Shown: in pieces, positions 1,297-58,533 of the stretch
Position numbering within the stretch: the stretch's first letter is position 1
Layout of the letters: every line of letters begins with the position of its first letter
NCBI GenBank assembly: GCA_012840225.1
Contig: DULU01000098.1
Location: 1 to 64,000, forward strand
Origin: Bacillota bacterium
GTDB taxonomy: Bacteria; Bacillota; Limnochordia; DTU080
Direction of reading: 5' to 3'
Length of the DNA stretch: 64,000 nucleotides
The notes under the pieces: generated by a model
The model's input: only the letters and a program-made list of their open reading frames with translations
Told to the model about the DNA's origin: nothing
The model's database searches: none
Position numbers and translations under genes: made by a program

Positions 1297-2634
1297 GTGT
1301 CAGTAAAAGTGTCCAGGCAAAAGATGCTCATTCTGGTGGTTTTAATGGGTTTGATGGGTTTGGCAAGTTTGGCGGGCTTGGCCGGCCTGGCCGGTGCTGC
1401 CCAGGTAGAGCTGCGCTTATGGGGTTGGGGCCCAGGCTCCCCCACCGGAAACGCTTTGGCCCAAATAATTGAAGAGTTTCACGCTACCCATCCGAATATC
1501 AGGGTCACCATAGAGCAGGCACAGAATGAAGAGAAGTTTCTGATCGCCTACGCCACCGGGGTAGCGCCGGATCTGACCTTCGGCGTAGGCCAGACAGCGG
1601 AAATCCTCGGTGGAGAACATGGCGCCCTGCTCCCTCTGAACAAATACCTGGACGGCCCCAACGGCATTCCCCGCTCCGAATTCGTCGACGACCTGTGGAG
1701 TTTCAGCATCGTGGACGGCCATGTCTATCAGCTGGCTATTGAAAGCAACGAACGGGCTTTATATGTCAACCGCCAGCATGCCGAACAAGCCGGTCTTTAT
1801 TCCGGGCAGACTTTTCCGGTCAAGAATTGGGACGATCTTTTGACCTGGGCCCGCCGTCTGACGGTACGGCAGGCCGATCAGGTGGTGCAGTGGGGATTCT
1901 ATGTCAACGGCCAAAACGGCGGCGACAGGTGGCACTGGGTGTGGCTGAATGACGGCAAATTGATCACCATGGAAAAAGAGCAGGCTGCGGACGGCAGTTG
2001 GGTGGAGCGGCCGGTGGCCCAGCTTACTCATCCCAACACCATCGCCGCCCTGCAGTATGCTTCCGATCTGATCCATGAATATGGCGTATCTCCCCTGCCT
2101 GCCGGCAGCCCCCGCACCCAGTTTCTGAACGGCAGGTACAGCATGCTGATCGATACCTCCGTCTTTGTCGGCAATCTGACCACCAGCAATTTTGAGCATT
2201 ACCTCACCATGCCCAGCCCGGTGGGTGTCGGGAAAGAAGGCGGCCGCTTCTCCGGAGCTTCCGCCAGCTGCCTGGCTATCAGCCGCTCCACCAAGCATCC
2301 CGAGGAAGCCTGGGAGTTCATGCGCTTCCTGGTGTATGAGAAGGCGGAGCCATTTACCATCGCCAGGGGCGGCATCCCCTATTTGAAGAGACTCCTGAGC
2401 GACAGGAGGTTCCAGAGTCACCCCTGGAGGGCTTTTGCCGTCCAGATCATGACCTACCGGCCGGAACGCGTCCTCTATATGATCCCGGCCAATGTCTGGC
2501 AGAGTTCCTTCCAGTCGGCCTGGGATAAAGCGATCAAGCGGGAGCAGGCTCCTCAGGTAGCCTTGCAGAGCGCCAATGAAGTGATCAGCGCCTCGCTGGC
2601 CGAATGGTGGCAGACACGGCAAAAAGGCAAATAA
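1297..2634 (+). CDS. ABC sugar transporter, extracellular solute-binding protein
   Basis: A family-1 type extracellular solute-binding protein of 445 residues, about the usual length. It begins with a basic segment and a long hydrophobic signal peptide, unusually rich in repeated GLAGLAG, ending at about residue 34. The mature part starts VELRLWGWGPGS and includes the typical PDLTFGVG segment. The GTG start at 1297 follows AGGAAGAGAG; GTG at 1309 or ATG at 1324 are alternatives. There are no membrane or ATPase subunits next to it, so it must use a transporter encoded elsewhere. The neighbouring BNR protein and oxidoreductase suggest an oligosaccharide ligand (inference). Confidence 0.85.
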   Translation: MSVKVSRQKMLILVVLMGLMGLASLAGLAGLAGAAQVELRLWGWGPGSPTGNALAQIIEEFHATHPNIRVTIEQAQNEEKFLIAYATGVAPDLTFGVGQTAEILGGEHGALLPLNKYLDGPNGIPRSEFVDDLWSFSIVDGHVYQLAIESNERALYVNRQHAEQAGLYSGQTFPVKNWDDLLTWARRLTVRQADQVVQWGFYVNGQNGGDRWHWVWLNDGKLITMEKEQAADGSWVERPVAQLTHPNTIAALQYASDLIHEYGVSPLPAGSPRTQFLNGRYSMLIDTSVFVGNLTTSNFEHYLTMPSPVGVGKEGGRFSGASASCLAISRSTKHPEEAWEFMRFLVYEKAEPFTIARGGIPYLKRLLSDRRFQSHPWRAFAVQIMTYRPERVLYMIPANVWQSSFQSAWDKAIKREQAPQVALQSANEVISASLAEWWQTRQKGK

Positions 2635-2662
2635 ACCAGGACAAGAAAGATAAATAATGGGC

Positions 2663-2740
2663 GGCTGCGGTAGCTCTGAGCCGCAGCTGAATGGGGCTGC
2701 GCCGGCGGTTTCTTTAAAGAGCGCCGGTGGCAGCCCCGTT
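2663..2740 (+). terminator. Two consecutive GC-rich hairpins after the solute-binding protein gene
   Basis: A small hairpin (GCTGCGG paired with CCGCAGC, 2664-2688) is followed by a large one at 2693-2737, where GGGGCTGC plus CCGGCG pairs with CGCCGG plus GCAGCCCC. The loop is A/T rich. No long T tract follows, so termination is inferred from position about 60 bp after the stop codon. Confidence 0.5.
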
Positions 2741-2816
2741 ACATATTAGCAGGCACATAATATAGCCAAACCTACAAGTATCACAGCGGGTGTTTTATAA
2801 TCAGGAGGAATTGGTT

Positions 2817-2858
2817 ATGCGGCCGGTCGGGCAGACTGGCTGGAGTATGTTTCATTAA
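2817..2858 (+). CDS. Possible 13-residue leader peptide
   Basis: A very good ribosome binding site (AGGAGG, 8-nt spacing) precedes ATG at 2817. The frame reads MRPVGQTGWSMFH and stops at TAA, 27 nt before the TTG start of the oxidoreductase. The site is too good to ignore, but the peptide is too short to recognise. It may be a translated leader or the remnant of a gene start. Confidence 0.3.
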   Translation: MRPVGQTGWSMFH

Positions 2859-2885
2859 ATATCATAATGGAGGCAGCATTGCAAA

Positions 2886-4109
2886 TTGAAAAAGGACAAG
2901 CTTGGAGTGGCGTTCATTGGCTGTGGACGGGTGTCGCCGAACCACATAAGAGCCATCGCCCAAAACTGCAACCGGGCCAGGTTGCTTTATGTTTGCGATA
3001 TTGTTCCCGAAAAGGCGGAGAAAGCGCGGCGTTTATATTATGAAGAGCTTAAGGCCTGCGGCTCCCAAGCTCATGCCCATGCTTCTGCCCACGCTCACCC
3101 TCCCGGCTCCCCTGCCGCCGCCGCTGCCGCCACTGTCGCCGCCATTGACGACTACCGCCGGGCGCTCGACGATCCGGCTGTCGATATGGTGACCATAGCC
3201 ACGGAAAGCGGCTATCATGCCGAAATGGCCCTGAATGCTTTGGCAGCGGGTAAGCATGTGTTGGTGGAAAAGCCCATCGCCCTCGACACCCGTGATGCTA
3301 AGCGGATGATCGCCCTCGCCGCTGAAAAAAAGCTGCGCCTGGGAGTCTGCCACCAGAACCGCTTTAATCCTCCGGTGCAACAGCTGAGAAAAGCTCTCGA
3401 TCAGAAACTCCTGGGAAAACTGATATACGGCACAATAAATGTCCGCTGGTATAGAGGTGACGACTATTACGCCGCCGAAGCCTGGCGGGGCACCTATGCC
3501 CTCGACGGCGGCTGCCTGATGAATCAGTGCATCCACGGCATAGATTTACTGCTGTGGATGATGGGCGATGCAGAGCGGGTGTATGCCGAATCCGGTACCT
3601 TCCTCCACCCCATTGAAGCGGAAGATACCGCCGTGGCCGCGCTGCGCTTCCGGAACGGCGCCCTGGGGATCATTGAGGGCACCACCTGCGTCTACCCGGC
3701 CAACCTGGAAGAAACACTGAATATCTTTGGCGAAAAAGGTACCTGCTGCCTGGGCGGAATGGCAGTCAACAAAGTGGAGCACTTCATCGTCTCCAGCAGC
3801 GATAACAATAACGGGCATATTAATAACGGGCATTTCAATCTGGGAGCCAACCAGGCGCACACCGACCTGGCAACGGCCACCGCCGCTGCCCCGCTGAATC
3901 CCATATACGGCAAAGGCCATACCCCGCTCTATTGGGATTTCATCGATGCCGTTTTCTCCGGGCGCTCCCCTGCCGTCGACGGTGAAGCCGGCCTCAAGGC
4001 TATAGAGATGGTGCTCGGCATCTATAAATCCGCCGCCACAGGACGACCGGTCGAGTGGCCGCTCGGCGATTACTCCACCTTGGAAGCGGCCGCCGACCTG
4101 AAGAGGTGA
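2886..4109 (+). CDS. Gfo/Idh/MocA family oxidoreductase
   Basis: An NAD(P)-dependent sugar dehydrogenase-type protein of 407 residues. The Rossmann motif is GVAFIGCGRVSPNH at residues 7-20. The catalytic-lysine motif is VEKPIALD and the C-terminal domain shows GGCLMNQCIHGIDLL. The TTG start at 2886 is supported by GGAGG 12 nt upstream. Two low-complexity insertions interrupt the usual fold: a His/Ala-rich stretch at about residues 60-80 and an Asn/Gly/His-rich stretch at about 305-335. The next gene starts within 10 nt of the stop, so the two are probably co-transcribed. The likely substrate is a sugar or uronic acid, inferred from the neighbours. Confidence 0.88.
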   Translation: MKKDKLGVAFIGCGRVSPNHIRAIAQNCNRARLLYVCDIVPEKAEKARRLYYEELKACGSQAHAHASAHAHPPGSPAAAAAATVAAIDDYRRALDDPAVDMVTIATESGYHAEMALNALAAGKHVLVEKPIALDTRDAKRMIALAAEKKLRLGVCHQNRFNPPVQQLRKALDQKLLGKLIYGTINVRWYRGDDYYAAEAWRGTYALDGGCLMNQCIHGIDLLLWMMGDAERVYAESGTFLHPIEAEDTAVAALRFRNGALGIIEGTTCVYPANLEETLNIFGEKGTCCLGGMAVNKVEHFIVSSSDNNNGHINNGHFNLGANQAHTDLATATAAAPLNPIYGKGHTPLYWDFIDAVFSGRSPAVDGEAGLKAIEMVLGIYKSAATGRPVEWPLGDYSTLEAAADLKR

Positions 4110-4114
4110 AAGCA

Positions 4115-4297
4115 TTGCCGTTCGTATCGTCATCGGCTTGGCGCAAAGTATCCTATTATGGCCGGCTCGTCCTTCGCAGCCTGGGCTTGACTTCCAGCAG
4201 ATTTGACTGCGATACCTGCAAATATAACTGGCGCAACGCCTGCCTTGATCCCAAGCGGCCCAATAAGCGGGTCTGCCTGCAATATGCCCGGCGGTAG
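4115..4297 (+). CDS. Small four-cysteine protein of unknown function
   Basis: A 60-residue protein read from TTG at 4115, which lies 8 nt after AAGAGG; GTG at 4106, overlapping the preceding stop, is the alternative. The N-terminal half is basic (WRKVSYYGRLVLRS). The C-terminal half has a compact motif C-x2-C-x7-C-x9-C with several Arg, Lys and Trp residues, compatible with a small zinc or Fe-S knuckle. It does not resemble a family I can name. Translation appears coupled to the oxidoreductase. Confidence 0.55.
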   Translation: MPFVSSSAWRKVSYYGRLVLRSLGLTSSRFDCDTCKYNWRNACLDPKRPNKRVCLQYARR

Positions 4298-4859
4298 GGA
4301 TGGATAGGGGGTCGCAGGTGGTCAAGCAAAAGCTCTGGGCGATCAATAATTAATGCCGATCAGTAACCCAAAGCCCTTCGTAGCATATGGATCAAGCGCT
4401 TGGGTGAGGAGATGAATCCGCTGAGGAGGAAATTCGTGAGGAGGGAATCCGTTTGGCCAACGCCACCCTCCTCACGCCGGTAGCTTCAATGCTCCCGCTT
4501 ATTTTGACTCCGAAACGCTTGATGATTAAGGCTGTTTTCCACCGCAGAGGCAGCGACAGAGCATAGGACTGAACTGCGGATTAACGAAACCGCAATAAGG
4601 AAGCCATAGGCGGCCGGCATATAGGCGGCCGGCTTATATCGTTTCCCAGGTGCTGTCGGCATAATGGATGCGCAGCGTAAAATACTCTTCCGTGGTGATG
4701 TCCGCCAGCTTCTCATCATCCGCTTAGTGCCGCTGCAACCAATTGCAACGCCAAAACAATAAACAACCGCAGGTGTGATTTCGATCACATTTTCGCGACA
4801 TGGATTCGGGGAAATGTGGCGAAGCCCCTAGGCATTTTGGGAAGGCTTTATAAGGTTGA
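4298..4859. other. Intergenic region with hairpin and decayed coding remnant
   Basis: No intact gene is seen. There is a perfect 10-bp stem hairpin at 4436-4475 (GTGAGGAGGG with CCCTCCTCAC) and a near-perfect direct repeat of AGGCGGCCGGC at about 4607-4634. A minus-strand coding remnant is listed separately. Confidence 0.5.
4634..4790 (-). pseudogene. Possible degenerate gene fragment
   Basis: On the minus strand one frame reads NWLQRH, a stop, then ADDEKLADITTEEYFTLR... to ...STWETI and a stop at 4634. The upstream part seems to continue in another frame as NVIEITPAVV. The amino-acid composition is protein-like, but one in-frame stop and one frame change break it. The family is not recognised. 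Confidence 0.3.
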
Positions 4860-5507
4860 TCAAGTCAGATCCAGAAAGCCGTAGCCGCCGTTGGTCAGTA
4901 TTTTATCGGTATTGATCGGCACCGGTACTTGGAAGATAGGGCCGTCGACCACCAGCGTGTGATACTCCCCAAATTCGCCGCAGGGGCTGACTCCGGCCTT
5001 TTTGAGCTCCTCCAGGGTGCTGTGGGTGAGCTTTCTCCCCAGCCATTCCGTCCCCAGTTTGTCCAGCTGGACGACGACGATGAGCGCCGTAAACCGGAGA
5101 GCCACCAGTTCGGCCAGCAAGTCATCTTGCTTATATCCCCAAAGGGGGTGCTCGGCCGTCAGGCCTTCTGCGGCGCAGATATCGCGGCACCACTGCCGGT
5201 GCTCGGGTATGTCGATATCGCCGAAGACCACCCCATGGTAACCTTCGGCCTTCAGGCAACGGAGGACTCTTTTGAACTCGGCTTCATAGCCGTTCCAGTC
5301 GGCACATCCGGTCACCACCGGCAGGCCGAGAGCCTGCGCCTGCCGTTCCAGAAGGGCTGGAGGAAGGCGGTGCGACATGGTGTAGCCTTGCGGAGAGACC
5401 ATGGTGAAAAGCGAAGCCACCTGCAAACCGCTTTTTTGGGCTTTATAAAGGGCGAGAGCGGCATCCTTGCCCCCGCTCCAGGAGACGGAGTATTTTAGCT
5501 GGTGCAA
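4860..5507 (-). CDS. ATP-pyrophosphatase (Dph6-like / diphthine-ammonia ligase family protein)
   Basis: An N-type ATP pyrophosphatase of 215 residues. The PP-loop SWSGGKDAALAL lies at residues 9-20, and the downstream GDIDIPEHRQWCRDIC and GEFGEYHTLV are typical of the Dph6/MJ0570 family. Archaeal and eukaryotic members amidate diphthine, but bacteria lack diphthamide, so the bacterial substrate is unknown. The TTG start at 5507 is supported by AAGGAG 7 nt upstream. The gene is divergent from the TPR-chaperone operon, with about 155 bp between them. Confidence 0.82.
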   Translation of the reverse strand: MHQLKYSVSWSGGKDAALALYKAQKSGLQVASLFTMVSPQGYTMSHRLPPALLERQAQALGLPVVTGCADWNGYEAEFKRVLRCLKAEGYHGVVFGDIDIPEHRQWCRDICAAEGLTAEHPLWGYKQDDLLAELVALRFTALIVVVQLDKLGTEWLGRKLTHSTLEELKKAGVSPCGEFGEYHTLVVDGPIFQVPVPINTDKILTNGGYGFLDLT

Positions 5508-5662
5508 AGCAGCGCTCCTTCGGTAGGTTAGGTAGACATGCGGCAGGTTGATTAGATGCGGTTATTTCACAGGCTTCATTTTTTCGCTTGAGGAACGCCA
5601 CTCCCCTCTTGCCGGCCCAAAATAATTCCAGACAAAATTTCACCTGCCACAGAAGGGCTGAA

Positions 5663-7954
5663 ATGGATGGGAATGGAACATATCGGTTCATGGCCAAACA
5701 TCATAAACGTACCAAAAAGAAAATGATTCTTGGCGATATGACCGGCAAAACGGCGTCTGCCGGCGGAAAAGGCGTCCCCTCTCCATCTCCCCAGCCGGTA
5801 CCGGCGGCGGATTTTGCCACTCTGGCCAACCAGGCCCTGAAGGCCTTTAACCGCCAAGAGTGGTCCACCGTCGTCAACCTGGCTAAAAGATATGCCTCTC
5901 CGGCCCCGGCCGGCAGAAGGGCGGGCGCCGGAGGCGGGACAAGCGGCGGTACCGGACCCGATGCCGGGCCCGGTGCCGGCGAGGAGGGTGCCCCCACAAT
6001 AAGCGCCCAAACTCAGTTTTGGGCCGGCATAGCCGCGGAAGCCCATTTCCGCCAAGCCCTCGATTATCTCCGGGAGGGGAGGCCGCGGGCGGTCATTGCT
6101 GAATTGACCAACGCCACCAAGTGGATGCCGGATGATGGCATATATTTATACCATCTTGGTCTGGCTCATCATCGCCTGGGTTATTGGCAGGATGCACTGG
6201 CCGCCTACGAAAAAGCCTGGCAGGTCGCCCCTTCCTGGCGGGTGGCCTATCACCAGGCGCTGGCGGCTATCCAGTCCGGCCCGGAGATTCTGGCCGCTCA
6301 ATGGGAGGTGCTCTGGAACCGGCTGCAAAGCACGGCGCCGAAAAAAGCCGCCGGCCGGGTGGCCCTAGCCAGACTGGCCGCCTGGGCCAAATGCACCATT
6401 AACCGGCAACCCCTGGATCTCGTGATCGATTGGGAAAGAGCGCACCAACTGCCGCCCCTGGTAAAACTGGAAGCCGGACTCTTCTGCCTGGTGACCGGCA
6501 AGCATAAAACGGCCGCTGCCCTCATCGAAAAAGCTTTGGCCGCAGATCAGGATCTTCCCCTTTCTTATCGACTGGCGGCGACCGGAGCTCAATATTTGGC
6601 GGAATTTTTAACTTGGCAAGGTTCCGGATCCGAAAAAACGCCAAGGGCCAAAGTTAAGGGCATAAATATCGGAGCATGGACTGCACGAGTCGGTGAGCTA
6701 ACCCAGGCCGTTCTGGATAAAAGCAGCCGTCATGAGGATCCCAATATAGAAGAAGGACTTAATTGCTTATACCGGTTGCTCTGGCATGCCGGCTGGCTCG
6801 CCTGGAAAGCAGGTTTGGTGGATGCCGCCGGCGCCGCTTGGTCTCTAGCCCATGGCGATGATAAAGATAATTTACATCGTCTCCCTCCGGAAGTGCTGCA
6901 CAACCTGGCGCTATTTAAGGAAAAAACCGCTGAGGACGTCGAGTCCATGGAATATTGGGAATCATATGCAGAAAGCCTCAGGAACAAGGGGCAGGCTAAG
7001 GCGGCCCTCACTCTCGGCATGGACCGCTATACGGCCGAACAGATGGCTATTCAGGTTTATCTGCATCTGTGCCGCATCGCCATGCAAATCGATGCCGATA
7101 TTAAAGAAGAATGGTTGCTTAATATCATCAACAACCGCCATGCCGATCCTCTTGACCGGTTGGAAACAGCGGAGGTGGCGGCTTCTGCAAGAGAAGCCCA
7201 GCTGGTGCGCCGGGCTTTGCTGCCTATTCAGCACCAGATAGTTACAGACCCTGAACTGCTGAGGCGAGCGGCGCTGATCTATAACCAGGCGGAAATGGAA
7301 AAGGAAGAGCTCGCCGCCTGGGAGCAATTGTATCGTTTGACTCCGGATGATCAAAAAGTGCGGACCGCACTGGCCGCCGCCTATGTTACCAAAGGAGAAA
7401 GGGAATTGTCGGCTGCAGCCGGCAAAAACCGCGAGCGGGCCAGAGAAATCTTCCGTGAAGCCTTGCAGCTCGATCCGGAAAATCTGGACGGCCAAGCTTA
7501 TCTGGCCTGCTGTTATTTGCTGAACGGCGATAAATCCGCCGCCCAGGCTCAGATAGATAAACTCATCACAAACAACAATATCCAACCGGCCGGCGCCTTG
7601 TTTCGTTTTGGGAAAATCCTGTGCGGCTTCACCCAGCTGCGGGAGATAGGACTGAGCTACGTCAAGAAAGCGTTAAAATTGGACGGCAGTGGAAATGCGT
7701 ATGCCCAAGCCGCCGATATCTGCTTTGCTTCCGGCTTTGTAAATGAAGGGAGACGTTTTGCCCGGAGGGCCATCAAGGAGTGGCATTATCAGCTGGATGC
7801 ATCTTTGGGCTTCGTCAGGTATCTTTTTGTTAACGGCAACCTTGATATCGCTCTGGAGCTCGCCAAGACACTATATCGCCATCATCCCGACTCCTCTCAA
7901 TTGTGCTGTCTCATCTACGAGATACAATTGAAGCAAAGGGATGAGGATACCTAA
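5663..7954 (+). CDS. Large TPR-repeat protein heading a chaperone operon
   Basis: Read from ATG at 5663 (AAGGG 6 nt upstream) the protein has 763 residues; the open frame extends to TTG 5588 without a good site. The N-terminus is basic (MAKHHKRTKKK), then comes a Gly/Ala/Pro-rich linker, then many helical TPR-like repeats with signatures such as YLYHLGLAHHRLGYWQDALAAYEKAW, and near the C-terminus DPENLDGQAYLACCYLLNGD. No signal peptide or membrane segment is seen, so it is cytosolic. It lies 19 nt upstream of a J-like gene, then GrpE and DnaK. It is therefore probably a scaffold or client adaptor for this Hsp70 set (inference). Confidence 0.75.
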   Translation: MDGNGTYRFMAKHHKRTKKKMILGDMTGKTASAGGKGVPSPSPQPVPAADFATLANQALKAFNRQEWSTVVNLAKRYASPAPAGRRAGAGGGTSGGTGPDAGPGAGEEGAPTISAQTQFWAGIAAEAHFRQALDYLREGRPRAVIAELTNATKWMPDDGIYLYHLGLAHHRLGYWQDALAAYEKAWQVAPSWRVAYHQALAAIQSGPEILAAQWEVLWNRLQSTAPKKAAGRVALARLAAWAKCTINRQPLDLVIDWERAHQLPPLVKLEAGLFCLVTGKHKTAAALIEKALAADQDLPLSYRLAATGAQYLAEFLTWQGSGSEKTPRAKVKGINIGAWTARVGELTQAVLDKSSRHEDPNIEEGLNCLYRLLWHAGWLAWKAGLVDAAGAAWSLAHGDDKDNLHRLPPEVLHNLALFKEKTAEDVESMEYWESYAESLRNKGQAKAALTLGMDRYTAEQMAIQVYLHLCRIAMQIDADIKEEWLLNIINNRHADPLDRLETAEVAASAREAQLVRRALLPIQHQIVTDPELLRRAALIYNQAEMEKEELAAWEQLYRLTPDDQKVRTALAAAYVTKGERELSAAAGKNRERAREIFREALQLDPENLDGQAYLACCYLLNGDKSAAQAQIDKLITNNNIQPAGALFRFGKILCGFTQLREIGLSYVKKALKLDGSGNAYAQAADICFASGFVNEGRRFARRAIKEWHYQLDASLGFVRYLFVNGNLDIALELAKTLYRHHPDSSQLCCLIYEIQLKQRDEDT

Positions 7955-45525: not shown

Positions 45526-45798
45526 TCAGCCCTGCCTGGGACGGATGATCTTTCTCACCGTGTCATAGCTCAGGTGATATTTCTCTGCTAAAAATTCCAG
45601 GCCGGCACCGCGACGGTATTCCTCCCTTATGGCTTCATTGCGCGTTTTCAGCTCCTGGCGCAATCCGGTCAGGCTGCCCCAAGGGCGCCGGTGCTCATCG
45701 GCGCTCGGAATATAGAGCAGGACCCCCTCTACATGCTTTTGCACTTCCCGCAGGAGGTGGGCCGGCAGAACTTCTTTGGCATTGCTGTATCTGGCCAA
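45526..45798 (-). CDS. CD3324 family (Mor-like HTH) protein
   Basis: A 90-residue protein read from TTG 45798, where AAGGAGGG lies about 5 nt upstream; the frame is open to 45849. It begins ARYSNAKEVLPAHLLREVQK, continues VEGVLLYIPSADEHRRPWGS and ends in a helix-turn-helix (GAGLEFLAEKYHLSYDTVRKII). This is the pattern of the CD3324 family in Clostridia, which are likely small DNA-binding regulators. It stands alone, and its target is unknown. Confidence 0.8.
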   Translation of the reverse strand: MARYSNAKEVLPAHLLREVQKHVEGVLLYIPSADEHRRPWGSLTGLRQELKTRNEAIREEYRRGAGLEFLAEKYHLSYDTVRKIIRPRQG

Positions 45799-46090: not shown

Positions 46091-49000
46091 TCAATTTATA
46101 TCCAGGCTCACCGTCAACTTATGCTCGCCGGGAGCCAGGTTGAGCATCAAGGTGTCTCCCTTCATGCTCCAGTCCAGCAGTTGGTGTGAGGACGACACCG
46201 CCCTGACTGCCGCTCCCTTTCCGGCCGGCAATTGCAGGGCGACTTCATATGGCTTTGATCCTGGAACCGCCGGATGCTGGATGGTACCGCTGATGCAGGT
46301 CTGGGTGAAGGTCAGCTCGGCGCTGATTTTTGCCGTGGCTTCCAGACTATAGCCATATCCGGACTGCCAGTAGGTACCTTCGGCGATGAGGAGCCCATAG
46401 GTGCCGTCGTTCCGCTCTCTCCAGGCAGCCACTGCCCCATCGGACTTGGCTGCGCCAACCTCCAGCACGGCGGCGGCTTCACCGGCTTCACCGGCTTCAC
46501 CGGCCTCACCCCGGCGGAAGAGGACCAGGGCTTCTTCGGCTTCTTCGGTTTCCTCGGGGGCGGCGATTTGCAGGCGCACGCCTTCCCCGGCGGCTCCGGC
46601 AACCACTTTTTCTACCTGCAGCCTAGGCTGCCCGCCCCGCTCCTGGCCGTCCTGACCTTCCTGACTGGCCGTATCTTTCTTGCCGGGAGCCAGTACCGCC
46701 AGGAAGGAGCCGGTCTCTTTGGCTTCTTTGGTGGTGGCCGTCAGGTGCCATTGGACCGGTTTGTTCATCGGCTCATCCAGCGGCACGGCAAACTGGTCGG
46801 TTTGGCTGTAAGATAAGGGACTCTCCGCCCACAGATAAGTGTCGAGGTAAGCTTTGGGCGCTTCGAAGAATATATGCCCCATATTCCCTTCGCCTTCATC
46901 AACGGTCATCTGGTGGTAGGAGTGGAGCAACCAGCTGTAGGTGCTGGGCTTGGGCGCCTTAAGATCGTCGTAGAGAACGAATATATCGGGCCGGACGTAA
47001 ACGGCATGGCGCACGAAACGCTCCAGCAGTGAAGATCCATAGGCCTTTTGGGCGTCTCCGGCGGTATAATCGAAGCTCTGGCCGTTCAGGAAACCGATGA
47101 TCTGCCCTTTGGCGGCGAGCGACTGTACAATCTGACCTTTGCCGTCGACCAATATGCCGTTGTGCGCCTGGGTAGTCTTCGTCCAGTTCATATGATGTTC
47201 GCTGCCATACCAGGGACGATAGCCGGAAGAGATGGCGAGCGGCTCCCCATAGGCCTCGAGGGTAAAGGTGTTCTGATCGGCGAAGCTATGGCTATAGGAA
47301 CCGTAGGGGCTGCTCTTGAGCATGAACTGGATGCCGTCTCTCCCGTCTCCGCCCATATATTTATGAAAGACGGTCCAGCCGATATCGGCAAAATAGGCCG
47401 AGGGCGGGAGGTCGAGCGGCGCTTTGGTGGAAACGCTGCGGACGTCATGCAGCACGGTGCGGATAAAACCCATCACGCCCATTTCCACCGTAACACCCAG
47501 CTTGCCGGCATACCATTTGTAATATGGATTATCATAAACGGCAGCCAGGAGATTCATCACCGCCCCGTCGGAAGAGGTGGGACTGCGATCGGCAAAGTCG
47601 CCGAACGGCCCCATTTTGCTATAGGGCGGTTGGGTGTAGAGTTTGAAGTTGCCGGTGTTGCGGAAAAAGGCTTTCTGAAACAGATCCAGGCCGGTGGCTT
47701 CCCGCAAGGCATCCACGAACCAGAATACCCGGTTCATGTAGCTGGTCCAGTAGGAATGGCCTTCCGCCCAGCCGCCCTGATCCTTACCCCAGGCGGGATA
47801 GATGGCGTAGAATATGCGGACGACGTAATCAAACCACTCCTCCGCCTCGGGTATCTCGCCCAGGAAGGCGATGGCCGCCTCTCCCAGGAAGCCGAGGGAG
47901 CGGCCGGCGTGGCTGGCGTAGGGACGGCTTTCGAATTTGCGCTGTTTCAGTATCTGATAGGCTTCGTTGCCCCTGATGCGCATGACATTGCGGATAATCT
48001 CCCTGTCCTCCGGGGTGAGGGCGTCATAGGCCCAGGTGTAGGCCCTGCTCATCTGCAGGAGGATGGGCATGGACGACTCATCGTTCACGGCAGCGCTGGT
48101 GGCACCGTTGGGGCTGGGATCCCAGGAGGCAATGTGCAGCATCCAGCGACGGGCGTCCTCGCCGAAAGCTTTATCTCCGGTCATCATGTAGGCAAAGGCC
48201 AATAACTCCATGGTGTTGGTGGCCTGGGTGGTTATGGAATACTGGCGCCACAGGTTTACATCCCACACACCGCCGGGCCGGCAATGGGGCGGCTCGTTGG
48301 GCAAAACCTGAAAGCGAGCGGTGAGAGCTTTGGTTTTCAGGTCGTTCCATAGAAGGCGAAAAAGCAGATCGCCGCTGTTCGGCTTATTCCGCCATTCCTC
48401 CAGGTTTTCAGGCCTGACAAAAAGCCTGGGGTGGGATGCGGGAATCTGCGCCCGCACCTCTTCCAGCGGCGGGAGCGGGAAGTGGATGGCATTGGCGTCG
48501 ATGTTAAAAGCCCGCACCTGCGTAGCCTGTGATTTGTTGCCCCGGCCGTCTACACCCCGTACCCGCCAGTACCAGGTCTTGGTGTCGTCCAGGAGCGTGG
48601 AAGGAGTATAGATGCTGATGTCGATATCCGGAACAGTGATGGTGTTTTCCGGCGAGAACTGCGGATCGGTGGAGTATTCCAGGATATATGATGTGGCACC
48701 GGTGATGGGTATCCACACGAAGGAAGGTGGATTGGTGGTAACCACCGCTCCGTCTGCTGGGGAGTAATCAAGTGTTTCGTCATTAGGCGTCAAGTTTACG
48801 TCACCACCCATCCAGGAATCTGCGCTGATCAGTACCAAAGAAGCATTGTCGAAACGGGCAATGCCGCTGATGGTGGTCATGGAATATAAGATGATGGAAA
48901 CCCACACCGTTCCTTCCGGTGCTTCCATGGTTATGGTCAATTTTTCCCAGTCGGATTTGTTGGTATAGATAGCTTGATGCTTGATGCGTTGTTTTCTGGC

Positions 49001-49459
49001 ATCCAGAAAGTCGAGATATAGGTATGCCCGGCCTTTCTCCTCAGCCATCGCCCAGACTGAAGCTCTATAAATTTGGCCTGCAGAGGCCGGAAAATTCTCG
49101 CTGCGTAAACCATAGCCGGTGGTGGTGGAAGGATCTTTAATGGTAAAATTCCAGTTACCGTCGAAAACCGGGGAGTTCTCGAAAAATAAATGTGTACCTA
49201 ATTCCCCTGAAGAGCCGAAGAGCTGCCAGCCCGGCGGTATGGCGCCGGGGGTCTGAATCTCGAAACCGGCGTTGGTCAAGAGTTCCTTTTCGGCTGCAAG
49301 GGCCGGCTCCACCCCCACTCCGCCGCCGCAGAGGAACAAAACTGCCGGTACCAGAATTGCCATAAGCAACAGCTTCGTGACCTTGGTCATATTCACCACC
49401 CTCATTCTTATTCTCATTCCGCTCGATGCTTCCGATGTTCCTTTTGCCGTTGGCGCCAT
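46091..49459 (-). CDS. Secreted heparinase II/III-like lyase with DUF4962-type N-terminal region
   Basis: A 1122-residue exported protein from ATG 49459 (AGGAGG 8 nt upstream); the frame begins at TTG 49477. The signal peptide lies at about 24-56. A jelly-roll domain follows (LLTNAGFEIQTPGAIPPGWQ), then a fibronectin-like segment (PADGAVVTTNPPSFVWIPIT), an alpha toroid (HPRLFVRPENLEEWR; WAEGHSYWTSYMNRVFW) and the beta domain SSPYGSYSHSFADQNTFTLE. The first His of the usual GHNHADQ is Ser-His here and the second is Phe, so the active site is altered. A Glu/Ala/Gly repeat (GEAGEAGEAGEAA) lies in the C-terminal part. The arrangement resembles PL35-like glycosaminoglycan lyases (family placement is inference). 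Confidence 0.82.
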   Translation of the reverse strand: MAPTAKGTSEASSGMRIRMRVVNMTKVTKLLLMAILVPAVLFLCGGGVGVEPALAAEKELLTNAGFEIQTPGAIPPGWQLFGSSGELGTHLFFENSPVFDGNWNFTIKDPSTTTGYGLRSENFPASAGQIYRASVWAMAEEKGRAYLYLDFLDARKQRIKHQAIYTNKSDWEKLTITMEAPEGTVWVSIILYSMTTISGIARFDNASLVLISADSWMGGDVNLTPNDETLDYSPADGAVVTTNPPSFVWIPITGATSYILEYSTDPQFSPENTITVPDIDISIYTPSTLLDDTKTWYWRVRGVDGRGNKSQATQVRAFNIDANAIHFPLPPLEEVRAQIPASHPRLFVRPENLEEWRNKPNSGDLLFRLLWNDLKTKALTARFQVLPNEPPHCRPGGVWDVNLWRQYSITTQATNTMELLAFAYMMTGDKAFGEDARRWMLHIASWDPSPNGATSAAVNDESSMPILLQMSRAYTWAYDALTPEDREIIRNVMRIRGNEAYQILKQRKFESRPYASHAGRSLGFLGEAAIAFLGEIPEAEEWFDYVVRIFYAIYPAWGKDQGGWAEGHSYWTSYMNRVFWFVDALREATGLDLFQKAFFRNTGNFKLYTQPPYSKMGPFGDFADRSPTSSDGAVMNLLAAVYDNPYYKWYAGKLGVTVEMGVMGFIRTVLHDVRSVSTKAPLDLPPSAYFADIGWTVFHKYMGGDGRDGIQFMLKSSPYGSYSHSFADQNTFTLEAYGEPLAISSGYRPWYGSEHHMNWTKTTQAHNGILVDGKGQIVQSLAAKGQIIGFLNGQSFDYTAGDAQKAYGSSLLERFVRHAVYVRPDIFVLYDDLKAPKPSTYSWLLHSYHQMTVDEGEGNMGHIFFEAPKAYLDTYLWAESPLSYSQTDQFAVPLDEPMNKPVQWHLTATTKEAKETGSFLAVLAPGKKDTASQEGQDGQERGGQPRLQVEKVVAGAAGEGVRLQIAAPEETEEAEEALVLFRRGEAGEAGEAGEAAAVLEVGAAKSDGAVAAWRERNDGTYGLLIAEGTYWQSGYGYSLEATAKISAELTFTQTCISGTIQHPAVPGSKPYEVALQLPAGKGAAVRAVSSSHQLLDWSMKGDTLMLNLAPGEHKLTVSLDIN
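46469..46510. repeat. 9-bp tandem repeat inside the lyase gene
   Basis: Four copies of GGCTTCACC/GGCCTCACC encode GEAGEAGEAGEA. In-frame expansion. Confidence 0.7.
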
Positions 49460-50139
49460 CACCATTACCTCCTCCAATCTGTCCTTCCCTTCTGCTTTTC
49501 TACCTACCTCCTACCGCACCCGATTCGGGAACCGAGCTGGGCTGCCCTGCCCTGAGCTCGAACGGAGCTCGGACGGAACTCGAACGGAACTCGGACGGAA
49601 CAATGACAGAGCTCTGACGGCAAGCCATATGTTCACTATTGTCCATCTATTTGTCTTTTACTCACCTGATTATCTTTGTCCGCCTGTTTGTCTCCACCCA
49701 CCTGTTTACCTATATCAATTTGTTTGTCTTTGACCACCTGTGGGCCTCTGCTTCGGCCACCTGTGGGCCTCTGCTTATGCCTTTGTCCTATGCTACACGT
49801 CCACACTATTAAATTTGCTGTTCCACACTATTTTCCAAGATCCTTTATTTTTGCGATTACGTATGCTGGCATGGAAGGCGAGCCGTGGGCGGCAGAGGAG
49901 GAGGCAGGAAGATGAGGGACGAGGGAGGCGAGGGGTGAGGGGTGAAGAGAGCAAGGAGGGGTCGACACCCTGCAGTTTTGGTAGAAATTATCCATAGCTG
50001 AAACAGTGCCTCTACCGGGTAATAAGCTGTAACAATGCCATTATGGCTGTGGAGCCACGCTCCTTAGCTGGCCGAGTGATGGGGCAATAGTGATGGAAAA
50101 AATACGGCAAAATCTTGGGGACGGCTCTTCTGCACGGCC
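49460..50139. other. Gene-free region with short repeats
   Basis: No convincing gene. It holds an 11-bp repeat x4 (ACTCGGACGGA type, 49556-49599), a 20-bp direct repeat (49734-49753 and 49757-49776) and a purine-rich stretch around 49885-49965. Open frames here have the composition of random GC-biased DNA. Confidence 0.5.
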
Positions 50140-51078
50140 ACCATCCCCGCCCTCCCCCTTGTCCTTGCTGATTTGGTTCAACCTCGTTGGTGCCAATGCT
50201 GCTGGCAATAATTGCCACCCGAGGGGAAGGTTGAGGGAGCGGTAAAATTTGGGCCACATGTCCCTCTTGCGGCATAAAAGCCCAGCTGAGCATACTCAAT
50301 GGGTACTTTTTTACCACCCTCTACTGCCCTGCCTCTCCATCCCCACCTTTGTTGATTTGGCTCCACCTTGTTCTGGCGCCAACGACTGCTGGCAATAATT
50401 GCCACCCGAGGGGAAGGTTGAGAGAGCGGTAAAATTTGGGCCACATGTCCCTTTTGCGGCATAAAAGCCCAGCTGAGCACATGGAATGGGTACTTTTTTA
50501 CCGCCCTCCACTGCCCTACCCCTCCATCCCACCCTTGTTGATTTTTGGCTCACCTTGCTCTGGCGCCAACGGTTGCTGGCAATAATTGCCACCCGAGGGG
50601 AAGGTTGAGGAAGCGGTAAAATTTTGGCCACATGTCCCTTTAGCGGTACAAAAGCCCAGCTGAGCATACTCAATGGGTACTTTTTTACCGCCCTCCACTG
50701 CCCTGCCTCTCCATCCCTGCCCTTTTTTGATTTGGCTCACCTTGCTCTGGCGCCAACGCTGCTGGCAATAATTGCCACCCGAGGGGAAGGTTGAGAGAGC
50801 GGTAAAATTTGGGCCACATGTCCCTTTTGCAGCATAAAAGCCCAGCTGAGCATACTCAATGGGTACTTTTTTACCGCCCTCCACTGCCCTGCCTCTCCAT
50901 CCCCGCCCTTGTTGATTTGGCTCACCTTGCTCTGGCGCCAACGCTGCTGGCAATAATTGCCACCCGAGGGGAAGGTTGAGGAAGCGGTAAAATTTGGGTC
51001 ACATGTCCCTTTTGCGGCATAAAAGCCCAGCTGAGCATACTCAATGGGTACTTTTTTACCGCCCTCCGCTGCCTCTCG
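50140..51078. repeat. Five-copy tandem array of a ~186-bp non-coding unit
   Basis: The marker word GCTGGCAATAATTGCC recurs at 50201, 50388, 50575, 50761 and 50946, with spacings of 187, 187, 186 and 185 bp. Each unit contains the palindrome TGGCAATAATTGCCA and distant arms GCGGTAAAA and TTTTTTACCGC that could pair. Copies are nearly identical, and the first is the most diverged and lacks part of its left side. Frames on the minus strand pass through because 186 is divisible by three, but unit lengths vary and stops intervene, so I read it as non-coding. Confidence 0.85.
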
Positions 51079-51290: not shown

Positions 51291-51380
51291 GCACCATGGC
51301 ACCATAGCACCATGGCATCATGGCATCATAGCACCATGGCATCATAGCACCATGGCATCATAGCACCATGGCATCATGGC
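51291..51380. repeat. 16-bp tandem repeat GCACCATGGCATCATA (5-6 copies)
   Basis: Almost perfect 16-bp units directly upstream of the dnaE promoter; the last copy ends 8 bp before the -35 box. Confidence 0.8.
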
Positions 51381-51387
51381 AGGTCAT

Positions 51388-51446
51388 TTGACATAGGATG
51401 GATTATGCGCTATACTACGAACATAAGTTTTCAGAACATCTGTTTT
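51388..51446 (+). promoter_or_regulatory. dnaE promoter with two LexA-like boxes
   Basis: TTGACA (51388), 17-bp spacer, TATACT (51411) form a near-consensus sigma-A promoter. Immediately after it lie CGAACATAAGTTTT (51418-51431) and AGAACATCTGTTTT (51433-51446). These are two 14-bp sites of the form GAAC-N4-GTTT, close to the Gram-positive SOS box CGAAC-N4-GTTCG. They cover the expected transcription start and would let LexA block the promoter. Confidence 0.65.
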
Positions 51447-51468
51447 GTTCGTCGGGAGGATTTACCGG

Positions 51469-54400
51469 ATGCCTGCGGGGAAGATTCCTTTTGTGCACCT
51501 GCATGTTCATTCTCCCTGGTCCTTTATGGACGGGGCCGACAGGCTGGAAGATCTGATCAATGCCGCCGCCCGGCTGGACATGGGCGCCTTGGCCCTGACC
51601 GACCACGATAATGTCTGCGCCGCCGTCCGTTTCTACCAACTGGCCACGGCGGCGGGTATAAAGCCTATCCAAGGGTGTGAAATAACCTTCGCCGGCTTTC
51701 GGGCGCGGGGTCCTTTTCATCTCACCCTCCTTGCCACCGGTCCCGAAGGGTATGCCAATCTATGCCGCCTTCTCTCCCTGGCCCACCTGGAAAACGAAAG
51801 GGGGCAGCCGCTCCTTTTGCCGGCGCATCTCGCCGAACATGCCGCCGGTTTGATCGTCCTCTCGGGATGCCGTCGGGGGGAGATTCCTTCGCTGCTGTTG
51901 CGCGGGAACAGTGAGGATGCCCTGCAGGCGGCCAGGGACTATGTGCAGATCTTCGGGCGGGAAAATTTTTACCTGGAATTGCAAGCCTTGCGCCTGCCCC
52001 GCACCAGGCAGCTCAATGCCGCCCTGGAAGATCTGGCAGCTCAGATCGGCTGCCGCACCGTCGCCACCAATAATGTGCATTATGCTACGCCCGATCGTTT
52101 CGCCCTGCACGATCTGCTCACTTGCATCCGTACCCAGATCTCCCTGGACGACGTGCATCCCGACCGCCCTCTGAACGGGCAAAACTGGCTGAAGTCGGCG
52201 GAAGAAATGGCAGCTCTCTTCTCAGAACACAGCCCAGCCTGTTTGGCTGCCAGCGCGGAGATCGCCGCCCGCTGCCGCCCCGTCATTTTGCCCAACAGGC
52301 ATCTTTTTCCCCTCTTTCCCACTCCTCCGGGCACCACGGCCGCCGCTTTACTGAAAGACAAAACTTATGCCGGCGCCGCCCGCAAATATGGCGTTCACAC
52401 CATCCCCCCGCACATCGAAAGCCGCCTTGAGCACGAGCTGAACATCATTTTCCGCCTGGAAGTGGAGGATCTTTTCCTAACTGTGGCGGATGTGGTGGAG
52501 TATGCCAGATCCAGACGCATTGCCTATTGCGGCCGGGGCTCGTCCGCCAACTCGGCCGTCGCTTATGCTCTGGGTATCTCCGAAGTGGACCCCATCGAGC
52601 GGGATCTGCTATTTGAACGCTTCCTCTCCCCGGAACGGGCCGACCTGCCGGACATCGACATCGATTTCGAATCTTCCCGCAGGGATGAAGTGATCGATTA
52701 CGTCTTCAAAAGGTTCGGCCGGGAGAGGGTGGCCGGAGTTTGCACCTTTTCCACCTATCAAGCCCGCTCGGCCATCAGGGATTTCGGTAAGGCGCTCGGC
52801 TTTCCCCAGGAAGAGATCGATACCCTGGCCAAAACCTTTCCTCATATGCATGCCGACCGTATTCCCCTCGCCTTGCAGGCCTTTCCCGAACTGCGCCACA
52901 GCCGGCTGCCGGTGGAACGATATGAACGCCTTTTCGGCTTCTGCGCTCAGGCGGCGGGTTTCCCGCGCCATATCAGCACTCATCTGGGCGGCGTGGTGGT
53001 ATGCCGTCACCCCATTCACCTGGTCAGTCCCCAGCAGATGGCGGCGAAAGGCATTCCCGTCATTCAATTTGATAAAGACGACTCCGAATACCTGGGACTC
53101 CTCAAGCTCGATCTTCTCTCCCTGCGCACGCTGAGCGCAGTGCGGGATACCCTGGACTCCCTGAACTCCCCGGATTCCGCAGTAGCCAAACCGGCAACAC
53201 CCAAACCGGCGGCGCCGACCGAGCCCGCCGACATCCCGAGGAACGACCCCGAGACTTTGGCCATGATCGATGCCGCCGATACCGTCGGCATCTTTCAGCT
53301 GGAATCACCGGCGCAGAGGGCTCTCCAGTCCATGCTGAACATCGACCGGATGGAGGATATTGTGGCCGGTATCTCCCTCATCCGCCCCGGACCGATCCGC
53401 GGCGGCATGGTCGCTCCTTACGTCAGGCGCCGTCAGGGTCTGGAGCAGGCCTCCTACCCCGACCCCAGGCTTAAGCCCATACTGGACAGGACCTATGGGG
53501 TGGTGCTCTATCAGGAGCAGGTACTGCAGATAGCCGTCGCCATCGGCGGCTTCACCCCCGGCGAGGCGGATAAGCTCAGAAGGGCTATGAGCAGCGCTCG
53601 CTCCGAGGCGGAGATGCAGAAGGTGATCGATCTTTTCATCAGCAAAGCGGTGGCCAACGGTTGCCATGAGGATGTAGCCCGCCGCATAGGAGCCAGCCTG
53701 GCCGCCTATTCAGGTTACGGCTTCTGCCAGGGGCATGCTGAAGCCTTTGCCGTCACCGCCTACAGAACCGCCTATCTTCTCCGCCACCACCCCGCCCATT
53801 TTCTGGCGGCCCTCATGAATAATTATCCGCTCGGCTATTACCCGCTGCACACCCTGTGCCTGGAAGCCAGGAGGCGCGGTATCGCCGTGCTCCCACCCGA
53901 CATCAACCTGAGCAGCGACCGCTTTGTCGTACAGCAGGAGGGCCGGGCCATCCGCACCTCCCTGCGGCAAGTGCGCCAGGTGGAGTCTTTGGCGGCCGGT
54001 ATAGTAGAGGAAAGAGAAAAAAATGGACCCTACACCGACCTGGTGGATTTTTGCCGCAGGATCAATCCATCGATAGATGCCCTCCACCAGCTGATCCTGG
54101 CCGGCACCTTCGACGGATTCGACATCAACCGACGGCGGGTTTTCTGGCAGGCGGCTCAAGCGTTGAAAATGGCATCATGCCCTGTCGGCTGGCTCGTCGT
54201 CTACCCGGATCAGAGCCCAGGCCTGGAGCAGGGCCCGGGCCTGGTGCAGGAACCGGGCCTGGTGCAGGGGCCGGATCAGGAGAAGAGCCGGCCGGCTAAC
54301 CGGGCATCCGTGGCCGATTTCACCCCGCCCGAGAAGATATATTACGAAATCAAAGCTTTGGGCTTTCCCATCAGCGGCCACCCGCTGGAGCTCGTACGCC

Positions 54401-54735
54401 GGCAACTCATGCAGGAAGGCTTCAGCACCACGGCCGAGTTGTCCCGCCTGCTCAGGGCGGACGGGCGGCAGGTGACGGTACGGGTGGCCGGCCTGGTGAT
54501 CAGGCCGCACCGCCCGGCCACGAGAAGCGGCCGGACGACCGTCTTCTTTTCTCTGGAGGACGAATACGGCTTGGTGGATGTCACCGTCTTTGAGGATGTA
54601 TATCAAAGGTACGGCCGGACTATCTTCTCTTCACCGGCCCTGAAAGTCGCCGGGCATCTTGAACGGCGGGGGAAGCGCGCCACCCTCACCGCCCACTCCA
54701 TACAGCCTTTCCGCATCGCCGGGTTGGTGGAGTGA
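51469..54735 (+). CDS. dnaE: Error-prone type DNA polymerase III alpha subunit (DnaE2/ImuC-like)
   Basis: A 1088-residue C-family polymerase read from ATG 51469 (GGGAGG 9 nt upstream). It starts with a PHP domain (VHLHVHSPWSFMDG, ALTDHDN). The polymerase catalytic acids are in LPDIDIDFE and LLKLDLLSLR. Then come a helix-hairpin-helix region and a C-terminal OB fold (VRVAGLVIRPHRPATRSGRT). Length and the short PHP domain match error-prone DnaE2 rather than the main replicase. Two low-complexity insertions (KPATPKPAAPTEPA; GLEQGPGLVQEPGLVQGPDQ) interrupt it. No imuA/imuB is nearby. The promoter region suggests damage induction. Confidence 0.88.
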   Translation: MPAGKIPFVHLHVHSPWSFMDGADRLEDLINAAARLDMGALALTDHDNVCAAVRFYQLATAAGIKPIQGCEITFAGFRARGPFHLTLLATGPEGYANLCRLLSLAHLENERGQPLLLPAHLAEHAAGLIVLSGCRRGEIPSLLLRGNSEDALQAARDYVQIFGRENFYLELQALRLPRTRQLNAALEDLAAQIGCRTVATNNVHYATPDRFALHDLLTCIRTQISLDDVHPDRPLNGQNWLKSAEEMAALFSEHSPACLAASAEIAARCRPVILPNRHLFPLFPTPPGTTAAALLKDKTYAGAARKYGVHTIPPHIESRLEHELNIIFRLEVEDLFLTVADVVEYARSRRIAYCGRGSSANSAVAYALGISEVDPIERDLLFERFLSPERADLPDIDIDFESSRRDEVIDYVFKRFGRERVAGVCTFSTYQARSAIRDFGKALGFPQEEIDTLAKTFPHMHADRIPLALQAFPELRHSRLPVERYERLFGFCAQAAGFPRHISTHLGGVVVCRHPIHLVSPQQMAAKGIPVIQFDKDDSEYLGLLKLDLLSLRTLSAVRDTLDSLNSPDSAVAKPATPKPAAPTEPADIPRNDPETLAMIDAADTVGIFQLESPAQRALQSMLNIDRMEDIVAGISLIRPGPIRGGMVAPYVRRRQGLEQASYPDPRLKPILDRTYGVVLYQEQVLQIAVAIGGFTPGEADKLRRAMSSARSEAEMQKVIDLFISKAVANGCHEDVARRIGASLAAYSGYGFCQGHAEAFAVTAYRTAYLLRHHPAHFLAALMNNYPLGYYPLHTLCLEARRRGIAVLPPDINLSSDRFVVQQEGRAIRTSLRQVRQVESLAAGIVEEREKNGPYTDLVDFCRRINPSIDALHQLILAGTFDGFDINRRRVFWQAAQALKMASCPVGWLVVYPDQSPGLEQGPGLVQEPGLVQGPDQEKSRPANRASVADFTPPEKIYYEIKALGFPISGHPLELVRRQLMQEGFSTTAELSRLLRADGRQVTVRVAGLVIRPHRPATRSGRTTVFFSLEDEYGLVDVTVFEDVYQRYGRTIFSSPALKVAGHLERRGKRATLTAHSIQPFRIAGLVE

Positions 54736-54790
54736 TAGGGTGGTGGAGTGATAGGGTGGTGGAGTGGTAAAGTGGCAAGGTGGTAAAGTG
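54722..54790. repeat. 16-bp repeat at the dnaE 3' end
   Basis: The last codons and stop of dnaE (TTGGTGGAGTGATAGG) are repeated downstream as GTGGTGGAGTGATAGG and a diverged third copy, then dissolve into GTGGTAAA/GTGGCAAG words. The repeat seems to have grown out of the gene end. Confidence 0.7.
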
Positions 54791-54859
54791 GTGAGGCGGC
54801 GGGCTGATAGGATGGCTACGGATCATAGATCATAGGCTGATAGCCTGATCTGCCGCCTC

Positions 54860-57870: not shown

Positions 57871-57920
57871 AAACGCTACATAACGCTACATAACGCTACA
57901 AAACGCCACAAAACGCTACA
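57871..57920. repeat. Five in-phase 10-bp repeats (AAACGCTACA)
   Basis: Five units of exactly 10 bp (T or A first, one copy with C for T). They overlap the DUF1961 stop and lie 68-117 bp upstream of the LacI-type start. The spacing equals one helical turn, so all copies face the same side of DNA. Confidence 0.7.
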
Positions 57921-58533
57921 AAGCACCGACATATAATTCTTTCCACACCAGTTTGGTCTGCCAGGTGCGCAGGGCTATGCGCCCGCCTGCCAGCGGGGCG
58001 GTGTCGGTTACATCATGGATCAACACCCCGTCGATGGCCGCCTGAATGTGCCCCTGCCGCACGGCAATATCGATTTTATATTCCCTGCCCAACTCGGCGT
58101 GGCAATTCATATCCTCTGCCATAAGCTCGAATCCGGGGTTTTTGCGCATGCGGGTGTGGCCTTCGCCGGGCTTGGGACCCACGAAGGTAAAGATATAATT
58201 CGGGAACTGGTGGTACTCAGGATAATGCCCGGCACGCTTTGCCGAGCTATTGAGGATGTCGCCGCCGCCGGCTTCCGTGGCGTGGAATATAAAGTTCAGG
58301 TTGTTTTTTCCCACAGGCGGGATCGGCATGAGTTTGAGCTGCAGCAATATGTCCCCGGTGAATATGTCCGGTTTATACCAAACAGTGGCGCCGCCGGCCA
58401 GCGCATCGACCACCAGTCCTCCGCCGTCGTCAATGCTCAGCTCGGCCGGTCCTTCCACCACCCACAGCTCCGGGTGGAAGCGGGTAATGTGCAACAGCGG
58501 CCGGGAAGGCGGCGCTTGCCATACATTTGTCAT
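57916..58533 (-). CDS. DUF1961 family protein
   Basis: A 205-residue protein of the DUF1961 family, a concanavalin-A-like jelly roll often found with polysaccharide lyases. Visible family parts are GDILLQLKLMPIPPVGKNNL, the acidic/aromatic HYPEYHQFPNYIFTFVG, RKNPGFELMAED and AAIDGVLIHDVTDTAPLAGG. No signal peptide. Its ATG overlaps the stop of the upstream lyase gene (ATGA), so the two are translationally coupled. Confidence 0.82.
   Translation of the reverse strand: MTNVWQAPPSRPLLHITRFHPELWVVEGPAELSIDDGGGLVVDALAGGATVWYKPDIFTGDILLQLKLMPIPPVGKNNLNFIFHATEAGGGDILNSSAKRAGHYPEYHQFPNYIFTFVGPKPGEGHTRMRKNPGFELMAEDMNCHAELGREYKIDIAVRQGHIQAAIDGVLIHDVTDTAPLAGGRIALRTWQTKLVWKELYVGAL

What the first reader, a model, noticed from the sequence alone, without database searches (positions are those of the whole stretch)
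50140..51078. Five tandem copies of a ~186-bp unit with internal palindrome upstream of dnaE
Seen: the word GCTGGCAATAATTGCC recurs every 185-187 bp five times. Each unit has the palindrome TGGCAATAATTGCCA and arms GCGGTAAAA/TTTTTTACCGC about 60 nt apart. No known CRISPR, IS or rRNA spacer pattern fits. Inference: a protein-binding array (iteron or partition-like), an array of small structured RNAs, or a satellite that spreads by recombination.
Basis: partly seen in the sequence, partly recalled or inferred. Interest (0 to 1): 0.65.

Follow-up and report, generated by a model that had tools for sequence, protein, structure and literature searches.

The report
Tandem hairpin array linked to nuclease
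Five near-identical 186-bp repeats in front of a DNA-polymerase gene turn out to be one outpost of a large, unnamed family of hairpin-forming DNA repeats that sit in tandem arrays all over this bacterium's genome and, at other sites, beside a gene for a DNA-binding nuclease, which suggests a selfish repeat system with an enzyme not known to be used this way.

Summary
The array is real: five copies, spacing 187/187/186/185, 92-97% alike. It is neither unique nor a plain satellite. This core recurs at about 17 loci of the same draft genome (reversed-pattern control: 0 hits), in tandem groups 168-300 bp apart, flanked by inverted repeats whose sequence differs between subfamilies. Relatives carry it too. 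Eleven of 17 loci lie within 500 bp of a contig end (P=1e-11), so the arrays were probably longer.

At six own-genome loci and in relatives the hairpins stand beside a gene for a new protein family: two winged helices plus a nuclease domain (D...EFNGxQH...D..K) like phage homing endonucleases. Across the phylum these genes are enriched for upstream tandem or inverted repeats (50% against 14% of control windows), including a complete 3,566,135-bp genome where 3 of 4 gene copies have arrays. The window's array has no such gene: a solo array.

Best reading: REPIN/BIME-like DNA hairpins spread or maintained by this nuclease. Mobility and cleavage are inferred, not shown. An RNA role is not excluded but found no support.

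The parts
50163..51073 (+). whole array: five tandem units of 185-187 bp
   Evidence: TRF period 187, 4.9 copies, score 1514; the repeat finder spacing 187,187,186,185
50203..50217 (.). palindrome TGGCAATAATTGCCA, unit 1 (also 50390-50404, 50577-50591, 50763-50777, 50948-50962); specific to this subfamily
50239..50317 (+). hairpin element of unit 1: 5' arm GCGGTAAAAT 50239-50248, 3' arm TTTTTTACCAC 50307-50317 (one outer mismatch)
   Evidence: folds
50276..50289 (+). conserved core AAAAGCCCAGCTGA, unit 1
   Evidence: genome-wide pattern with zero reversed-pattern control hits
50426..50504 (+). hairpin element of unit 2; core 50463-50476
50613..50691 (+). hairpin element of unit 3; core 50650-50663
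50799..50877 (+). hairpin element of unit 4; core 50836-50849
50984..51062 (+). hairpin element of unit 5; core 51021-51034

Best explanation
The array is a solo tandem array of a large family of DNA hairpin repeats: an outer inverted repeat around an inner conserved core, AAAANNCCAGCTNA. The family has diverged into subfamilies with different arms. It is associated with, and most likely spread or maintained by, a two-winged-helix nuclease with a homing-endonuclease-like catalytic domain that is encoded next to some copies. Proposed working: the winged helices bind the inverted repeat, as duplex sites or as a cruciform; the nuclease nicks or cuts in or near the element; repair from another copy, or slippage and unequal recombination, copies the hairpin to new sites and amplifies hairpin plus linker into tandem arrays. 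Arrays such as the one in the window are copies without an enzyme gene of their own. SHOWN: dispersal, tandem organisation, conserved core, variable but complementary arms, statistical linkage to the nuclease gene. INFERRED: binding, cleavage, transposition or homing, and dependence on the nuclease in trans.
For: Core pattern 25 matches in the own genome against 0 for the reversed control; tandem groups at C5, C10, C42, C51, C91, C139, C147. Subfamily B copies from six loci align over the hairpin only. Arms differ between subfamilies yet are complementary, most beyond dinucleotide shuffles. 11 of 17 loci lie within 500 bp of a contig end, P=1e-11. Gene family beside hairpins at C5, C51, C42, C18, C74, C143 and in G005, G004, G016, G028, G034. 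Upstream repeats at 18/36 gene copies against 35/254 control windows, P=3e-6; 14/32, P=1.5e-4, after leaving out loci found through the core. Complete genome G414: arrays directly upstream of 3 of 4 gene copies. Nuclease motif shared with phage genes of homing-endonuclease type.
Against: About half of the gene copies have no detectable repeat within 1.2 kb. The linkage of the core alone, without loci found through the core, is modest (5/18 against 9/115, P=0.02). No empty site or strain comparison shows movement. The window array has no nuclease gene nearby. Orientation relative to the gene is not fixed. Gene products with self-binding upstream operators would give part of the same picture.
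Confidence: 0.5

Rival explanations
1. Structured RNA: each unit is a gene for a small RNA that acts with the nuclease, as guide or antitoxin (in the way of OMEGA or type III toxin-antitoxin systems), the loop AAAANNCCAGCUNA being the functional part.
For: Conserved loop inside variable, complementary stems; a T-run at the 3' arm; tandem RNA repeats next to a nuclease are known from type III toxin-antitoxin systems (own knowledge).
Against: No Rfam match; no covariation above control in subfamily B; G.U pairs not enriched among arm mismatches (43 of 309); orientation to the gene varies; many arrays without a gene; no known guide-RNA or toxin family hit in the protein.
Confidence: 0.15
2. Operator-like binding sites: the winged-helix protein binds the repeats upstream of its own gene to regulate itself, and the dispersed copies are a regulon or decoys without mobility.
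For: Repeats are mostly upstream of the gene; palindromic sites suit winged-helix dimers; each gene copy in G414 has its own repeat type.
Against: Solo arrays with no consistent position or orientation relative to neighbouring genes; units of 100-230 bp are long for operators; the conserved core lies between the arms rather than in them; the invariant nuclease residues are left unexplained.
Confidence: 0.15
3. Non-autonomous transposon relics (MITE-like) of an ordinary insertion sequence: the inverted repeats are terminal repeats, and the nuclease gene is a bystander or passenger.
For: 20-bp terminal-repeat-like arms in G004 and shared arms among dispersed copies in G005.
Against: Arms change completely between subfamilies while the internal core stays, the opposite of a MITE; no target-site duplication was noticed by eye; tandem arrays with linkers are unusual for MITEs; the same gene family recurs with repeats in other families and in a complete genome.
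Confidence: 0.09
4. Neutral satellite grown by unequal recombination, without any enzyme.
For: High identity within arrays; linkers differ freely between loci.
Against: Core and complementary arms are kept across loci and families while linkers are not, and the repeats sit beside a conserved gene family.
Confidence: 0.06

Closest known systems
REP / BIME / REPIN repeats with RAYT (TnpA-REP) transposases
   Same: Dispersed intergenic palindromic hairpins, often in arrays, with a nucleic-acid-cutting enzyme encoded beside some of them and each enzyme lineage having its own repeat type (PMC2817692, PMC3116915).
   Different: Enzyme is a two-winged-helix protein with a homing-endonuclease-like domain, not an HuH tyrosine transposase; units are about 80-230 bp, not 20-40; no GTAG head recognised; the gene is not flanked by two inverted repeats.
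Phage EDxHD / PD-(D/E)xK-type homing endonucleases
   Same: Catalytic motif D...EFNGxQH...D..K shared with many phage genes; DNA-binding modules tethered to a nuclease domain (PMC3943268).
   Different: Not in an intron, intein or phage gene; fused to two replication-initiator-like winged helices; sits by hairpin arrays; several copies per chromosome.
Iteron-binding replication initiators (two winged helices)
   Same: Two winged-helix domains, best PHROG matches among replication initiation and DnaD-like proteins; repeat arrays next to the gene.
   Different: Carries a nuclease domain; many chromosomal copies; arrays exist far from any gene copy; units are long hairpins.
Type III toxin-antitoxin (ToxIN) or OMEGA (IscB/TnpB with guide RNA)
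   Same: Repeats or a hairpin upstream of a nuclease gene.
   Different: Orientation not fixed, solo arrays common, no RNA signature found, no matching protein model.

Membership tests
REP/REPIN-RAYT | HuH tyrosine transposase (Y1) encoded with the repeats | tested here: not met
   Pfam, NCBIfam, PADLOC and PHROG scans of the neighbouring protein show winged helices and a homing-endonuclease-like domain, no Y1 transposase
REP/REPIN-RAYT | 20-40 bp palindrome with GT(A/G)G head | tested here: not met
   Arm-to-arm length 79 bp in the window and up to 231 bp elsewhere; no such head recognised in the aligned units
REP/REPIN-RAYT | enzyme gene flanked by two inverted REPs (PMC2817692) | tested here: not met
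   Repeats on one side, mostly upstream
Homing endonuclease | catalytic motif of a known homing-endonuclease family | tested here: met
   Invariant D, E, NG, QH, D shared with phage relatives; PHROG 9084 and 7140, E down to 4e-11
Homing endonuclease | gene inserted in its own target site; allele conversion | not testable with these tools
   No strain pairs with and without the element at hand
CRISPR array | short identical repeats with unique spacers and cas genes | tested here: not met
   Units are alike over their whole length; neighbouring ORFs in the window were not cas-like by reading, no systematic cas search
Known structured RNA family (Rfam) | match to a covariance model at or near gathering score | tested here: not met
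Structured RNA in general | compensatory changes above control, G.U pairs | tested here: inconclusive
   Within subfamily B not above control; no G.U excess; between subfamilies arms change together, which fits DNA hairpins as well
Integron attC array | R boxes RYYYAAC/GTTRRRY and an intI integrase | tested here: inconclusive
   R boxes not seen by eye at the arm ends; intI was not searched for

The most novel reading that the evidence does not exclude
A previously undescribed class of bacterial mobile system: a winged-helix nuclease of homing-endonuclease type that copies long DNA hairpins, each gene lineage having its own hairpin, producing tandem arrays and solo arrays across genomes of one phylum. 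It would be a further route, besides HuH (RAYT) and DDE (MITE) enzymes, by which palindromic repeats spread.
Probability: 0.35. Interest if true: 0.85.

Novelty: new variant of a known kind. Interest (0 to 1): 0.7.

Why it matters
Enzyme-linked palindromic repeats are known mainly as REP-RAYT and as transposon relics (own knowledge). A repeat family tied to an unrelated nuclease family, present in a complete genome as well as in uncultured relatives, offers a testable new mechanism of repeat spread. It would also explain why the draft genome of this organism breaks at these loci.

Tried and rejected
Rfam at curated and permissive thresholds on window, B and C51 units: only noise. IMG/VR pattern scans: 6 hits, about what chance gives, and 0. 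A tRNA D-arm or twister-ribozyme likeness of the core was considered by eye and dropped. The attC reading was dropped for lack of R boxes. Position next to sugar-transport genes was considered as cis-regulation, but orientation and context are mixed. Covariation in subfamily B: not above control. G.U test for RNA: no enrichment. PDB search with the nuclease domain: no match. A viral search with the G414 protein found no relative. Some core matches look like chance matches and were set aside (e.g. C120:75838; the C14-end/C82 pair shows no clear hairpin). Literature searches found no description of such a system in the open-access library.

Full report
OBSERVATION. The array is as described: TRF 50163-51073, period 187, 4.9 copies; key word at 50201, 50388, 50575, 50761 and 50946; arms and core present five times each, hairpin parts 92-97% identical. 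It lies between a divergent secreted-protein ORF (46091-49477, -) and a dnaE-like ORF (51445-54735, +).

THE FAMILY. A DNA search of the own genome (G000, 3.55 Mb, 154 contigs) brought, besides the five units, matches limited to the stretch around AAAAGCCCAGCTGAG on other contigs. As a pattern, AAAGCCCAGCTNA has 25 matches and the reversed control none; AAANNCCAGCTNA has 46 against 2. The hairpin-bearing members form tandem groups: C5 (265 bp apart), C10 (300), C42 (253), C91 (232), C139 (229), C147 (244, plus a third copy), C51 (three at 168 bp). By sequence they fall into subfamilies: A (window), B (GTGGCAAAAAAGTGGC.../...GCCACTTTTTTGCCA), C, D (C51), E, F. B copies from six loci align over about 105 bp of hairpin and hardly beyond, whereas tandem neighbours share more of the linker. 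So the dispersed module seems to be the hairpin, and tandem growth local. Eleven of 17 loci lie within 500 bp of a contig end (expected 4%, P=1e-11); the arrays were probably longer than the assembly shows.

RELATIVES. In the same order, G002, G003, G004 and G005 carry the core inside quite different inverted repeats, e.g. GTCCGAAANNTGC/GCANNTTTCGGAC in G005 and TGTCAATACCGTGTACA in G004. Arm complementarity exceeds at least 59 of 60 dinucleotide shuffles for about two thirds of 33 representatives; the weaker ones include subfamily F and the end of C145. G001, of the same family, has no core match and no full-length gene.

THE GENE. ORFs next to several arrays share a signature (...AKLVW...). 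They are one family: two winged-helix domains (HTH_36; PHROG replication initiation / DnaD-like) and a C-terminal nuclease (PHROG homing endonuclease, intron-encoded nuclease). D242, E253, G256, Q258, H259, D278 and K281 are invariant in 15 sequences. The nuclease motif (D, EFNG, QH, D) is shared with phage genes; 79 viral loci match this domain. No solved structure matches it by sequence. G000 has about 11 copies, some of them fragments at contig ends; G003 and G005 have several, G002 and G004 one full copy each. At C5, C51, C42, C18 and C74 the hairpins lie just upstream, the core on the strand opposite to the gene. At C143 a 22-bp inverted repeat of span 195 lies upstream in the other orientation.

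INDEPENDENT TEST. Genes found by protein search alone were checked for repeats. G016 (another family of the class, 20 contigs) has an upstream hairpin of span 231 with the core AACGCCCAGCTTGA; G028 (two loci) and G034 have the core upstream. Over all gene copies with full flanks, 18/36 have a tandem array or strong inverted repeat within 1.2 kb upstream, against 35/254 control windows (P=3e-6). Leaving out loci found through the core: 14/32, P=1.5e-4. The core itself: 10/25 against 9/115 (P=2e-4); without core-found loci 5/18, P=0.02. Control windows overlap in part, so these P values are approximate. G414 is a one-contig genome of 3,566,135 bp (from memory, the published size of Symbiobacterium thermophilum) with four gene copies. 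Three have arrays immediately upstream: about 14 hairpins of a 16-bp stem at period 75, 5.7 copies of an 86-bp hairpin unit, and 7.9 copies of a 37-bp repeat containing AACCCAGCTTCA. Contig breaks cannot explain the linkage there.

RNA OR DNA. Nothing favours RNA: no Rfam family, no covariation above control within B, no G.U excess among arm mismatches (43 of 309, on loose alignments), orientation relative to the gene not fixed. A conserved loop would suit recognition of a folded strand of either kind, so the RNA rival keeps some weight.

MECHANISM. Shown: dispersal, local tandem repetition, a conserved core within variable complementary arms, linkage to a nuclease gene. Inferred: the protein recognises the hairpin and cuts, and repair copies it; solo arrays such as the window's depend on a gene elsewhere. 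The nearest may be on C74, which appears to follow the end of this same contig, since both ends carry the same element.

COMPARISON. It works like REP/REPIN-RAYT (PMC2817692, PMC3116915) but fails that family's tests: no HuH transposase, no GTAG head, different size, gene not flanked on both sides. The catalytic domain resembles phage homing endonucleases (PMC3943268), but the setting does not. I found no description of this combination in the open-access library; subscription papers could not be searched.

TAXON. The phylum sample containing G414 points to Bacillota in the wide sense (inference).

Noticed in passing
window 51291-51381: 8/16-bp tandem repeat GCATCATAGCACCATG between the array and the dnaE-like ORF, 5.7 copies.
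   Followed up: no
window 49557-49620, 54725-54793, 57871-57922: Further short tandem repeats (11/22-bp, 16-bp and 10-bp units) around the locus; the genome seems rich in them.
   Followed up: no
L078 (G000 C147) 5335-7305: Two genes resembling a toxin-antitoxin pair (Panacea-like by eye) lie between the second and third hairpin copy.
   Followed up: partly
L380 5192-6220, L381 7923-8411, L383 9290-9540 (G414, one-contig genome): Three copies of the nuclease gene each have a different tandem repeat array directly upstream; the fourth copy (L382) shows none nearby.
   Followed up: partly
L207 (G000 C120) 2411-4707: Two copies of the nuclease gene in tandem; the second has lost the EFNGxQH motif and no hairpin was found beside them.
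   Followed up: partly
L105 (G000 C18) 639-1831: A copy of the nuclease gene that appears frameshifted next to its hairpin.
   Followed up: no
G000 C14 end (45621-45634) and C82 end (7365-7378): Two contig ends share an identical AT-rich stretch with AAAAGCCCAGCTAA but no clear hairpin; possibly the end of another repeated element.
   Followed up: no
L338 (G034 C8) 1986-3336 and 4153-4478: Long tandem arrays (132-bp and 72-bp units) upstream of another copy of the nuclease gene.
   Followed up: no
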